From: an uncultured Elusimicrobiales bacterium | GTDB taxonomy: Bacteria > Elusimicrobiota > Elusimicrobia > Elusimicrobiales > Elusimicrobiaceae | NCBI GenBank assembly: GCA_944324115.1 | Contig: CALUVB010000004.1 | Location: 1 to 64,000, forward strand | Direction of reading: 5' to 3' | Length of the DNA stretch: 64,000 nt | In this document: in pieces, positions 49,135-53,795 of the stretch | How positions within the stretch are numbered: the stretch's first letter is position 1 | How the letters are laid out: each line of letters starts with the position of its first letter | Program-made: the position numbers and the translations under genes | The notes under the pieces: generated by a model | What the model saw: the letters and a program-made list of their open reading frames with translations, nothing else | The model's database searches: none | Told to the model about the DNA's origin: nothing

Positions 49135-50832
49135 ATGAAGAAAATTTCTATGCTGCTGGCCTTATTGGCTGTGGGGGTATGGGGTGCGGCGGAACCGTGT
49201 GATATGGCGCAGCAGACGCCTTTGCGTTTAATGGAACAGGAATTGAAGCGCAGTTTTAAAGTATTAAAAAAGCAAAAACCGCCTATTTACTATTTGTCTT
49301 ATACTTATACGCAAGGGCAGCAACAGTCTTTGGGTGTGGCCTATAACGGAGTGGCTTTTCAAGAAGAAAAAGAAGTATCCGTGGCGGAGGTAATGGCTCG
49401 GGCCGGCAGCCCGCAGCTGGACAATACCCATGCTTTACGCGCAGAGAGGGAAAACTGGACAATTCCCAATTCACAGACGCCTTTGCCGGATCCTTCGGAT
49501 ACGAAAGGTTTTTTGTCTGAGTGGTGGGCGCTTACGCAGCAAGCGGCGGAAAGAGCCCAGCAGGATTTGAGCCGGGTGGAGTCTAATGTGCGTTCCATGG
49601 CCTACACGCGGGACCAATCGGCCGATTTTGTATTTCCTGCAAAGCAAGATTATTGTCATACGCAGCCCTTGCAGCAGGTAGATTTAAAACGTTTTGAGGA
49701 ACGGTTGTTGGCGGCGTCTAAGTTAACATTAGGCAAGCCATTCGTTTTGTCTGCTTCCTTTATCATGACGGTAAGCCAGGGGCACCGCTATTTCGTAGAC
49801 AGCCGCGGCACGCGTCTGAAAACGCCTTATTCTTTCCTTCGTCTGATTTATCAGTTGGAAGGGCGCAGCCCAGATGGGTTGGAAATAAGCCGCGACGGTA
49901 TTTATGATGTGGCATCGCCCGAGCAGTTCCCTTCCCGGGAAAAATTATTGGCAGATGTGGAGAAATCATTGGCAGAGTTGCAAGAGCTTTCCCAAGCGCC
50001 GGAAGGCACCCCGTATAATGCGCCGACCATTTTGAAAGGCCGCGCGGCGGCGGTATTTGTGCATGAAGTGATGGGACACCGGCTGGAAGGCTATCGCTTG
50101 AAAAATGCCGATGACGGACAAACCTTCTCCGGTAAAGTCGGCCAGCAAGTTATTTCTCCGCTGATTACCATCACGGCAGACCCGACGATGACGGAATTTA
50201 ACGGAGAGCCCTTGCGCGGACATTATGAATATGATGATGAAGGAGTAAAAGCCCGTTCGGTTACTTTGATAGAAAATGGCGTGCTGAAAAACTTTTTAAT
50301 GCAGAGCAGTCCTATTGAGGGATTTGCTTTTTCCAATGGGCATGGCCGCAAACAAATCGGCCGCCGGCCGGAGGCGCGTATGAGCGTTATCCGTGCTACC
50401 GCTTCCGAAACAGTGCCCTATGAACGTTTGGAAGAAATGCTTATTGAACAAATCAACAAACAGGGCAAACAATACGGATTTATTGTGGAAGATTTGAGCG
50501 GCGGATATACATTAACCGGCACCAGCCTGCCGCAAAGTTTTAAATTGCAGACTAAGCGGGTATTTAAAGTGTATCCAGACGGGCATAAAGAAGTCGTGCG
50601 CGGCTTAGACGTGGTAGGTACGCCGCTGGTAAGCTTCAATAAAATTATAGCCGCCGCAGATGATGATACCTTATTCAACGGCACCTGTGGGGCTTCTTCG
50701 GGTAATGTGCCGCAAAGCAATATTGCTCCCAGCCTTTTGTTTGAAAATCTGGAAATGGAAAAAACCCGCAAAAATGATTTTAAGCTGCCCGTTTTGCCTG
50801 CGCCGGATAGGGAAGGGGGAAAGACGAAATGA
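49135..50832 (+). CDS. Exported TldD-like metalloprotease
   Basis: 565 residues from the ATG at 49135 (GAGGGAG upstream). Unlike cytoplasmic TldD it begins with a signal peptide (KKISMLLALLAVGVWGAAEP). The TldD active site is intact: H310-E-V-M-G-H315 in AAVFVHEVMGHRLEG, the HExxxH zinc motif, and a Cys in NGTCGASSGNVPQSN matching the third ligand. TldD/TldE heterodimers degrade or trim unfolded peptides, as in microcin B17 maturation. Residues 20-240 are a longer N-terminal region than in E. coli TldD. Overlaps the TldE-like gene by 4 nt, so the pair probably assembles outside the cytoplasm. Confidence 0.85.
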   Translation: MKKISMLLALLAVGVWGAAEPCDMAQQTPLRLMEQELKRSFKVLKKQKPPIYYLSYTYTQGQQQSLGVAYNGVAFQEEKEVSVAEVMARAGSPQLDNTHALRAERENWTIPNSQTPLPDPSDTKGFLSEWWALTQQAAERAQQDLSRVESNVRSMAYTRDQSADFVFPAKQDYCHTQPLQQVDLKRFEERLLAASKLTLGKPFVLSASFIMTVSQGHRYFVDSRGTRLKTPYSFLRLIYQLEGRSPDGLEISRDGIYDVASPEQFPSREKLLADVEKSLAELQELSQAPEGTPYNAPTILKGRAAAVFVHEVMGHRLEGYRLKNADDGQTFSGKVGQQVISPLITITADPTMTEFNGEPLRGHYEYDDEGVKARSVTLIENGVLKNFLMQSSPIEGFAFSNGHGRKQIGRRPEARMSVIRATASETVPYERLEEMLIEQINKQGKQYGFIVEDLSGGYTLTGTSLPQSFKLQTKRVFKVYPDGHKEVVRGLDVVGTPLVSFNKIIAAADDDTLFNGTCGASSGNVPQSNIAPSLLFENLEMEKTRKNDFKLPVLPAPDREGGKTK

Positions 50833-52475
50833 AGAAATATATTTGGTTGTTGCTGCTTATAGCCTTGTGCCCGTTGAAGGCGGCCCAGCTGCCTGATAAT
50901 ATGTATTTTCGGGCGATGCAAGATGAAATGCACCGTACCCAAAAAGAGCTCCGCTCTCCCGGCAGTCCCCGGCCTTTTTTTACGGCCTATAAAGTGATAG
51001 AAAACAGCACCCAAAGTTTTGAGGCTCAATTTGGAACGGCGGTGATTACGGTTCCTCATGTTTTTACGAATGTGACGGCGCAGGTATATGTGTATGCCGG
51101 AACGGACAAGAAGAACAGCTCCGGTTTTAGAAATGACGCCTATTCCTATGCTCCGGAAATTTCCACTGCCGTGCCACAAAGTTATGAAGGGTTGCGGCGC
51201 GTATTGTGGCGTTTGACGGACAGCGCATATGTCGCGGCGGCCAATACCTATGAGAAAAAAGAAGCTTATAACCGCCAGAAAAATATAACAGATGTCTTGC
51301 CGGATTTTACCTCGGCGCCTAAAGCCGCCTATGTGGGGGCAATGGTCCCATTTCCGCAGGTCAATGAGAAAGCGTATCAAGATTTGGTCAATCAGCTGTC
51401 CGCTTTGGGCAAAGAGTTGCCTTATTTGGAATCTTTCTCTGTCCTGTTGACCCGGAACAAACGGGATATTTACTTTTTAGACAGCGAGGGAGACTTTTAC
51501 CAATACAGCCAGCCCTCCGTTACAGTGGATTTGTTTGCTTCTCTGCGCAATAAAGAAGGATACAAAAGGCAATTTACAGAGCAAATCTCCCTGCCGTGGG
51601 ACCAAAACCCGGACCGCGATGCATTGGAGAAAAAGACGCAGGCATTTTTAGACCAACTGGCCGCCGCCTATCAAGCCCGCAAAGCAGAGCCCTATTTGGG
51701 GCCGGTGCTGTTGGAGCCGGAAGCAGCGGGTGGATTTTTTAACCAATTATTTATTCCCAATGCCAATAATCCCAGACCGGTTCCGTCTTCTTTTTGGGAA
51801 ACAGACCCTATGGCCGGGCAGTTTAAAGATAAGCTGGGTATGCGGGTGGTCAGCCATTTGTTAGACGTCTATGACCGGCCCTATGTGCGGGAATATGAAG
51901 GCAAGATGTTGCAAGGCTTTATGCCGGTAGATGACGAAGGCGTGGAAGCGCAGCAGCTGCAGCTGGTACAGAGCGGCAAGCTGCTGGCACTGCCCTTATC
52001 GCGCAGTGTTATGAAAGGGCAAAAACACAGTAATGGACATGCGCGCATGAGTAACTGGAGCTATCCCCGGGCTATGTTGACTAATGTGTTTGTGGTGCCT
52101 AAAAATCCACTGCCGCGGGAGCAATTGGAACAGCAGCTGCTGCAGCGTTGCCAAGAGCTGGGCTTGGAATATGGTTATATTTTCCCGCGTTTTCCGTCTG
52201 TTTATGATGAAGATCAAGAAGTGGCTTTTGCCTGGCGTATTTATGTTTCCGACGGGCACAAAGAGCCCGTATATGGATTGCATTTGCCGGGAATTACCAC
52301 CCGCAGCCTGCGCGATATTTTAGCCGCTGGGAATGATGCGGAAGTTTCCCATTTTTCCGAAAAAAATGTTTTTGTCCCTTTTTCCGTTATTGTTCCCTCG
52401 TTGTTGGTAGATGAAATGGAAATCTTGCCTACCCAGCTTAAACCGGAGCGCAAGCCTTTTGTTCCGTTGCCTTAA
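50829..52475 (+). CDS. Exported TldE/PmbA-like partner protein
   Basis: 548 residues with a signal peptide (YIWLLLLIALCPLKAA). It has the same architecture as the preceding TldD-like protein, including a shared C-terminal pattern (YEGKMLQGFMPVDDEGVEAQ, HSNGHARMSNWSYPRAMLTN). The zinc motif position reads EAAGGFFNQLF, with no His-Glu, as in TldE/PmbA, the non-catalytic partner. Together the genes encode a secreted version of the TldD-TldE peptidase. No clear terminator follows; the next gene starts 108 nt later. Confidence 0.8.
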   Translation: MKKYIWLLLLIALCPLKAAQLPDNMYFRAMQDEMHRTQKELRSPGSPRPFFTAYKVIENSTQSFEAQFGTAVITVPHVFTNVTAQVYVYAGTDKKNSSGFRNDAYSYAPEISTAVPQSYEGLRRVLWRLTDSAYVAAANTYEKKEAYNRQKNITDVLPDFTSAPKAAYVGAMVPFPQVNEKAYQDLVNQLSALGKELPYLESFSVLLTRNKRDIYFLDSEGDFYQYSQPSVTVDLFASLRNKEGYKRQFTEQISLPWDQNPDRDALEKKTQAFLDQLAAAYQARKAEPYLGPVLLEPEAAGGFFNQLFIPNANNPRPVPSSFWETDPMAGQFKDKLGMRVVSHLLDVYDRPYVREYEGKMLQGFMPVDDEGVEAQQLQLVQSGKLLALPLSRSVMKGQKHSNGHARMSNWSYPRAMLTNVFVVPKNPLPREQLEQQLLQRCQELGLEYGYIFPRFPSVYDEDQEVAFAWRIYVSDGHKEPVYGLHLPGITTRSLRDILAAGNDAEVSHFSEKNVFVPFSVIVPSLLVDEMEILPTQLKPERKPFVPLP

Positions 52476-52583: not shown

Positions 52584-53795
52584 ATGAAACACGTAACTGT
52601 GTTTTATAAAGCTGTTAGTTGCCTGCTTTCTGTCATGTTAGTAGGCACTTCTGTTATGGCGCAGGATATAAACAGCAAGTTACTGCAAGCCCGTAACCGC
52701 CAGCAGGCAGATGTTGATTGTATTCTGTCTCAGATTCAATCAACCTCTTTTGCTGGCCAAGATGGTGAAGAATATGAGGTAGATGTAGCAAAAGCACTGA
52801 AGATGCTGGCTTGGACAGCCTCAGCCGGTTTTGCTGCTGTGGCGGCGAAACATATGGTGAAAGCTTGGAAACAGGGCTTTTTTGATACAGGATTTAACTA
52901 CCATGCTTTAAATGATAAGGCTTGGCAGCAAATAAAAGCCGTCAAGCTTGCGGAAATACGGCAGTTGGAACAGCAGATAAAAGAAGATGCTTTGAAACGG
53001 TATCATAGCCGTTTTTCTCTTTCTGAGTTGGGAGAAGATAACCTGCGTTTTCTAAATGAAGTGATGCGCCGCAATGTGGAAGAAGTGGGGATTCCGCTTC
53101 CTCAGATTTACTATGAAAAACCACAACTCAGTTTATCCGCATATCTAGAAAATAGAGGGAAAGAAGCAATAAAAATATTTATTGTCAAACCGGAAAAAGA
53201 AATGGAGTTTGGACGAAAAGTGCTCAGCCAGTTGAAAAGATATAAAAGATTTTCTTATATAAAGACGCTGCCTCTTGGTGAAAGCGTGCTGGAATACGTA
53301 AGTCCGCTTGGCATTAGCAAAAGACTCTCGCAGGAAATATACTATGATATGCTATGTGACAATATTTTTAGAGATTGTATAGAGGAGATTTCCGCTGAAC
53401 AAGCGTATAAGAAGATGACCTTTAATGGCCGTTATATCGTGGTAGGCAAATATTTTTTGTCTATAAGAAATGTGGTCTCCATTGTGGCGGCGGGGGCTTT
53501 GCTGGGGGCTATGTCTTGGACAAACAAATTGTCTGAACAAGAAATCATGGCCCGGGTAGAAGAAAACCCCGCTTTATTTTTTAATCTTTCTGATGAAGAT
53601 TTGAAGCGCATAGAAAAATCAGAAAAATTGACTAATAAATATATGGAATTCTGCGATCATATTCATGAGATAGCTTCTTTGTCCTCTGACGATTTGCACA
53701 ATATGTTTCAGCAAAGTCACCATATGCTGCAGCAGGAAAAAGCATTGGCAAAGCAGCATATAATTCGGGAAATAGAAGCAGCCATTGCCCGTTAA
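52584..53795 (+). CDS. Unknown exported protein
   Basis: 403 residues. A signal peptide ends TSVMAQ. The rest is mostly helical and charged (QIKAVKLAEIRQLEQQIKED, LKRYHSRFSLSELGEDN), with a hydrophobic stretch VVSIVAAGALLGAMSW at about 305-320 that could be a membrane segment, then more helix to HIIREIEAAIAR. The DNA is richer in A+T than its neighbours and codon choice is less GC-leaning, which may mark acquired DNA. I do not recognise the family. A strong terminator ends the gene. Confidence 0.75.
   Translation: MKHVTVFYKAVSCLLSVMLVGTSVMAQDINSKLLQARNRQQADVDCILSQIQSTSFAGQDGEEYEVDVAKALKMLAWTASAGFAAVAAKHMVKAWKQGFFDTGFNYHALNDKAWQQIKAVKLAEIRQLEQQIKEDALKRYHSRFSLSELGEDNLRFLNEVMRRNVEEVGIPLPQIYYEKPQLSLSAYLENRGKEAIKIFIVKPEKEMEFGRKVLSQLKRYKRFSYIKTLPLGESVLEYVSPLGISKRLSQEIYYDMLCDNIFRDCIEEISAEQAYKKMTFNGRYIVVGKYFLSIRNVVSIVAAGALLGAMSWTNKLSEQEIMARVEENPALFFNLSDEDLKRIEKSEKLTNKYMEFCDHIHEIASLSSDDLHNMFQQSHHMLQQEKALAKQHIIREIEAAIAR

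What the first reader, a model, noticed from the sequence alone, without database searches (positions are those of the whole stretch)
49135..52475. A TldD/TldE peptidase pair carrying signal peptides
TldD and TldE are known as cytoplasmic partners. Here both begin with clear signal peptides, TldD keeps HEVMGH and the Cys ligand, and TldE lacks the zinc site as usual. Both have enlarged N-terminal regions. This implies an extracytoplasmic TldD/E protease, perhaps for peptide nutrition or for cutting exported substrates.
Basis: partly seen in the sequence, partly recalled or inferred. Interest (0 to 1): 0.62.

Follow-up and report, generated by a model that had tools for sequence, protein, structure and literature searches.

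The report
Exported TldD/TldE zinc-protease pair
Two neighbouring genes of a gut-type Elusimicrobia bacterium encode the two halves of a protease known from inside cells, but here both halves carry export signals; the same exported pair occurs in many bacterial phyla, forms its own protein lineage, and I found no paper that describes it.

Summary
TldD (49135-50832) and TldE (50829-52475) overlap by ATGA and each starts with a Sec-type signal peptide. TldD keeps H310-E311-xxx-H315 and Cys518; TldE has lost them. AlphaFold models match E. coli TldD/E from right after the signal peptide to the end. It is not a local oddity: all 37 genomes searched in the genus and all 24 in the sister family match the pair, and a scan of 85,000 species confirmed at least 578 relatives in many phyla. 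In loci inspected, 119 of 122 TldD are directly followed by TldE and nearly all of both start with signal peptides; in one locus they are fused behind a single signal peptide. The genus has lost the ordinary cytosolic pair and kept only the exported one. Trees put exported D and exported E together, apart from cytosolic D and E; grouping D with D and E with E is rejected, so the inactive partner probably arose separately here. Best reading: an extracytoplasmic heterodimeric zinc peptidase that cuts unfolded peptides in the envelope. Export, dimer and activity are inferred; the substrate is unknown. New variant of a known kind.

The parts
49135..50832 (+). Exported TldD (catalytic subunit), 565 aa
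   Evidence: PF19289 2e-27; fold match to E. coli TldD Z 37.5; conserved in 61 of 61 relatives
49135..49191 (+). Signal peptide of TldD (residues 1-19, cleavage site inferred)
   Evidence: Sequence; conserved pattern in relatives; simple rule
49198..49200 (+). Cys22, genus-specific cysteine just after the signal peptide (possible disulfide with Cys174)
   Evidence: Co-occurs with Cys174 in all 32 loci of the genus group, both absent together outside
49654..49656 (+). Cys174, possible disulfide partner of Cys22
   Evidence: distance not measured
50062..50079 (+). HEVMGH: metal ligands H310 and H315, catalytic E311
   Evidence: Invariant in 22 exported TldD; aligned with E. coli H262/E263/H267
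50686..50688 (+). Cys518, third metal ligand (equivalent of E. coli Cys454 in GxCG)
   Evidence: Invariant; ungapped motif comparison
50829..52475 (+). Exported TldE (non-catalytic partner), 548 aa
   Evidence: PF19289 1.7e-18; fold match Z 25.2 to PmbA; no HExxxH
50829..50882 (+). Signal peptide of TldE (residues 1-18, cleavage site inferred)
   Evidence: Sequence; conserved pattern in relatives; simple rule

Best explanation
The two genes make an exported TldD/E heterodimer. Both chains cross the inner membrane by the Sec route and form the known hollow TldD/E shell in the periplasm (or further out). TldD holds a metal ion through H310, H315 and C518, with E311 as catalytic base; TldE closes the chamber and has no active site. 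Unfolded peptides enter and are cut without sequence preference, so the likely job is to break down or trim peptides in the cell envelope: food peptides or debris of exported proteins. Shown here: genes, motifs, predicted fold, conserved order and signal peptides, separate lineage. Inferred: export, dimer, metal, activity. Guessed: substrate.
For: Signal-peptide pattern on both partners in nearly all relatives and not in cytosolic paralogues. Invariant metal site in D only. Full-length fold match to the solved E. coli enzyme, which degrades unfolded peptides (PMC5810440). D directly followed by E in 119 of 122 loci. Natural D-E fusion with one signal peptide and no internal one. Genus keeps only this pair: 0 of 37 genomes have PF01523, 23 of 24 sister-family genomes do.
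Against: No localisation or activity data. SignalP was not run; the simple rule cannot tell a signal peptide from a membrane anchor. Two clamp residues of E. coli TldD (D272, K456) are changed to His/Tyr and Ala, so substrate handling may differ. No gene neighbour supports a peptide role.
Confidence: 0.68

Rival explanations
1. The exported pair processes one specific exported substrate (a leader peptide of a modified peptide, or an envelope protein), as TldD/E does for microcin B17, rather than peptides in general.
For: Best-known TldD/E role is leader removal (PMC5810440, PMC10885120). Strong conservation in streamlined gut genomes fits a dedicated task.
Against: No modified-peptide cluster beside the pair in the window, and no recurrent partner family among 111 neighbours from other phyla. 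TldD/E genes often lie outside such clusters, so absence is weak evidence.
Confidence: 0.15
2. The pair is exported but acts on an amide or N-acetyl bond of a non-protein envelope compound, like TldD/E-related N-deacetylases of antibiotic pathways.
For: The family includes N-deacetylases (title of a review cited in PMC10885120; review not held). The clamp residues differ from the E. coli peptidase. In some relatives a polysaccharide deacetylase gene follows TldE.
Against: Metal site, fold and heterodimer match the peptidase. The deacetylase neighbour is in a minority of one family.
Confidence: 0.1
3. The N-terminal hydrophobic stretches are not export signals and the proteins are cytosolic or anchored facing inwards.
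For: No experiment; the simple rule also calls some membrane proteins and 4 of 23 cytosolic ones.
Against: Both partners share the pattern in dozens of genomes of many phyla; the fold begins right after it; the fusion protein dropped the second copy; cytosolic paralogues in the same order lack it.
Confidence: 0.05

Closest known systems
E. coli TldD/TldE (PmbA) microcin-processing metalloprotease, MEROPS M103, PDB 5NJ5-5NJF
   Same: Whole-chain fold (Z 37.5 for TldD), HExxxH plus Cys metal site in D only, inactive E partner, D and E needed as a pair (by analogy)
   Different: E. coli pair is cytosolic, encoded at two distant places, about 20% identical; D272 and K456 are His/Tyr and Ala here; exported D and E group together in trees, apart from cytosolic D and E
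Cytosolic TldD/TldE pairs of the sister family in the same order (L153-L172)
   Same: Adjacent pair, HExxxH in D
   Different: No signal peptide, PF01523 present, HESVGHxxELD motif and no GxCG cysteine motif; lost in the window's genus
TldE/PmbA structures 3QTD, 1VL4, 1VPB, 3TV9, 6J6A
   Same: Fold of the window TldE (Z about 24-25)
   Different: About 13-16% identity; described as cytosolic-type proteins; belong to the other D/E lineage by inference from the tree

Membership tests
TldD/TldE protease family (M103) | PmbA/TldD C-terminal domain PF19289 | tested here: met
   96.3 and 67 bits against a cut-off of 22
TldD/TldE protease family (M103) | HExxxH plus remote Cys metal site in TldD only | tested here: met
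   H310, E311, H315, C518 invariant in D, absent in E
TldD/TldE protease family (M103) | Overall TldD/E fold | tested here: met
   Foldseek and VIA-align 2, whole chain after the signal peptide
TldD/TldE protease family (M103) | Heterodimer needed for activity | not testable with these tools
   Indirect support only: conserved adjacency and a natural fusion
Classical (cytosolic, orthologous) TldD and TldE subfamilies | N-terminal domain PF01523 and NCBI equivalog cut-offs for TldD/PmbA | tested here: not met
   No PF01523 hit; best NCBIfam 66.7 bits against a cut-off of 635
Classical (cytosolic, orthologous) TldD and TldE subfamilies | Exported D groups with cytosolic D, exported E with cytosolic E | tested here: not met
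   Rejected, 174 log units, p-AU 4e-7; robust in most subsets, p 0.013 for the C-terminal part alone
Sec-exported proteins | Cleavable N-terminal signal peptide | tested here: inconclusive
   Sequence pattern met in both and conserved; SignalP and experiment not available

The most novel reading that the evidence does not exclude
The exported pair is an old sister lineage of cytosolic TldD/E in which an inactive partner subunit evolved from the active one a second time, independently of cytosolic TldE, giving a separate class of periplasmic chambered metallopeptidase found across many phyla.
Probability: 0.5. Interest if true: 0.75.

Novelty: new variant of a known kind. Interest (0 to 1): 0.6.

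Why it matters
TldD/E is reported in about 60% of bacterial genomes (PMC10885120) and is treated as a cytosolic enzyme. A widespread exported class would mean that a chambered peptidase works in the envelope of many poorly studied bacteria. Its own D/E split would be a natural repeat of how an enzyme acquires a dead partner.

Tried and rejected
Misread start codons: rejected by relatives and ribosome sites. Lipoprotein: no lipobox before Cys22. Extra N-terminal domain: rejected, the fold match starts right after the signal peptide. A second, cytosolic pair in this genome: none found. A modified-peptide or other cluster around the pair: none seen; the most frequent families among 111 neighbours from other phyla occur in only 3-4 of them. 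A constant third gene: the 403-aa ORF downstream has a relative only in the nearest genome. VKOR for disulfides: no hit; one weak DsbA-like hit. Papers on exported TldD/E: none found in the seven TldD searches that ran, but the library lacks most subscription papers, including the main family review. A chance HExxxH or GxCG in a few TldE lies elsewhere in the chain. One multiple alignment put E. coli Cys454 two columns off; the ungapped motif comparison was used instead.

Full report
What is there. Two plus-strand genes fill 49135-52475. The first encodes a 565-residue TldD, the second a 548-residue TldE whose ATG overlaps the TldD stop. Pfam finds the PmbA/TldD C-terminal domain in both (2e-27, 1.7e-18) but not the N-terminal domain PF01523; NCBI's TldD and PmbA models score far below their cut-offs. 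Upstream lie a leftward tRNA and TerC gene; downstream an orphan ORF and leftward TPR, patatin and TolC-like genes.

Signal peptides. Both proteins begin with a lysine pair, a hydrophobic core and small residues at a plausible cleavage site. SignalP was not available, so I used a simple rule and calibrated it: 5 of 5 exported and 4 of 23 cytosolic E. coli proteins were called, and the two window proteins have stronger cores (3.1, 3.5) than any cytosolic one tested (at most 2.25). The rule does not separate signal peptides from membrane anchors. Conservation is the stronger argument: 40 of 40 TldD and 39 of 40 TldE in relatives of the order start this way, usually behind a ribosome site, while none of 19 cytosolic TldD from the sister family does, at any of its first six possible starts.

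Active site and fold. In 22 exported TldD the residues H310, E311, H315 and C518 are invariant. They correspond to E. coli H262, E263, H267 and C454, the metal site and base of the solved enzyme (PMC5810440). Exported TldE has lost them. AlphaFold2 models are good (pLDDT 88 and 90). Foldseek finds only TldD/TldE structures above noise. VIA-align 2 gives Z 37.5 for TldD against E. coli TldD (450 residues, 3.6 A) and Z 25.2 for TldE against P. aeruginosa PmbA (423 residues, 3.1 A), both starting at residue 22. The extra length is therefore insertions, not a new domain. Two E. coli residues that tie down the substrate clamp, D272 and K456, are His/Tyr and Ala in the exported class.

Who has it. 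All 37 genomes searched in the genus and all 24 in the sister family match. PF01523, which marks the cytosolic pair, is absent from all 37 genus genomes but present in 23 of 24 sister-family genomes. In the whole family 79 of 80 genomes have TldD-type C-terminal domains, nearly always exactly two; in the phylum 55 of 120 sampled genomes have the exported class. One carrier is a single contig of 1,643,562 bases, which from memory is the length of the cultured Elusimicrobium minutum Pei191 genome; its D and E both start with signal-peptide-like sequence. Titles of metagenome records may be wrong. Among the inspected loci TldE follows TldD directly in 119 of 122 cases; of the other three one is a D-E fusion, one ends at the contig edge and one has no match downstream. 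In the named records 78 of 81 D and 74 of 75 E have a signal-peptide-like start. In 18 of 24 genomes from other phyla the cytosolic family is present too, so the two classes often coexist.

A natural fusion. In a contig titled Candidatus Eisenbacteria (L124) D and E form one 1,121-residue protein: one signal peptide, full D, a short linker and mature E without its own signal. This supports both joint export and a heterodimer.

A separate lineage. Profile scores show that exported D and E resemble each other (about 190-360 bits across) more than either resembles cytosolic TldD/E (about 10-85 bits). Trees with cytosolic sequences from many phyla and E. coli group exported D with exported E. Forcing D with D and E with E costs 174 log-likelihood units (p-AU 4e-7). 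The rejection holds for the C-terminal part alone (p 0.013), the N-terminal part alone (2e-5), without catalytic columns, and with a mixture model. Either the dead partner evolved twice or gene conversion homogenised one pair; long-branch effects are not fully excluded.

Envelope chemistry. In the genus, TldD has a cysteine just after the signal peptide (Cys22) and one at 174. All 32 loci of the genus group have both (some loci are the same genome fetched twice, and the genus of a few named records is inferred from closeness); no protein outside has both. This fits a disulfide, but the distance was not measured. The genome has one weak DsbA-like match and no VKOR match.

Function. E. coli TldD/E degrades unfolded peptides without sequence preference (PMC5810440). 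The simplest reading is the same chemistry moved to the envelope: breakdown or trimming of peptides there. Neighbour families outside the order show no recurrent partner. In the sister family the pair often sits between molybdenum-hydroxylase genes on the same strand, an arrangement not seen in the gut genus. I put 0.68 on an exported, active heterodimeric peptidase; the substrate is open.

Noticed in passing
L058, L060-L070, L104, L106, L110, L113, L118, L125, L130: In much of the sister family the exported TldD/E genes sit between two sets of xanthine-dehydrogenase-type molybdenum hydroxylase genes and a CsgG-like gene, all on one strand.
   Followed up: partly
L153-L172: Cytosolic TldD of the sister family has HESVGH but no GxCG cysteine, so its third metal ligand must differ from E. 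coli Cys454.
   Followed up: no
window 52584-53795: A 403-aa ORF with a signal-peptide-like start and no Pfam match; its only relative found is 31% identical in the nearest genome.
   Followed up: partly
L120, L126, L139, L140, L143: Genes for exported-looking M16 (insulinase-type) peptidases lie within about 5 kb of the exported TldD/E in five records from other phyla.
   Followed up: no
L148, L152: Two tandem copies of the exported D-E pair in gammaproteobacterial records.
   Followed up: no
genome G106 (same family, other genus): A 1.2 Mb genome, 92% complete, has no TldD-type domain at all, the only one of 80 in the family.
   Followed up: no
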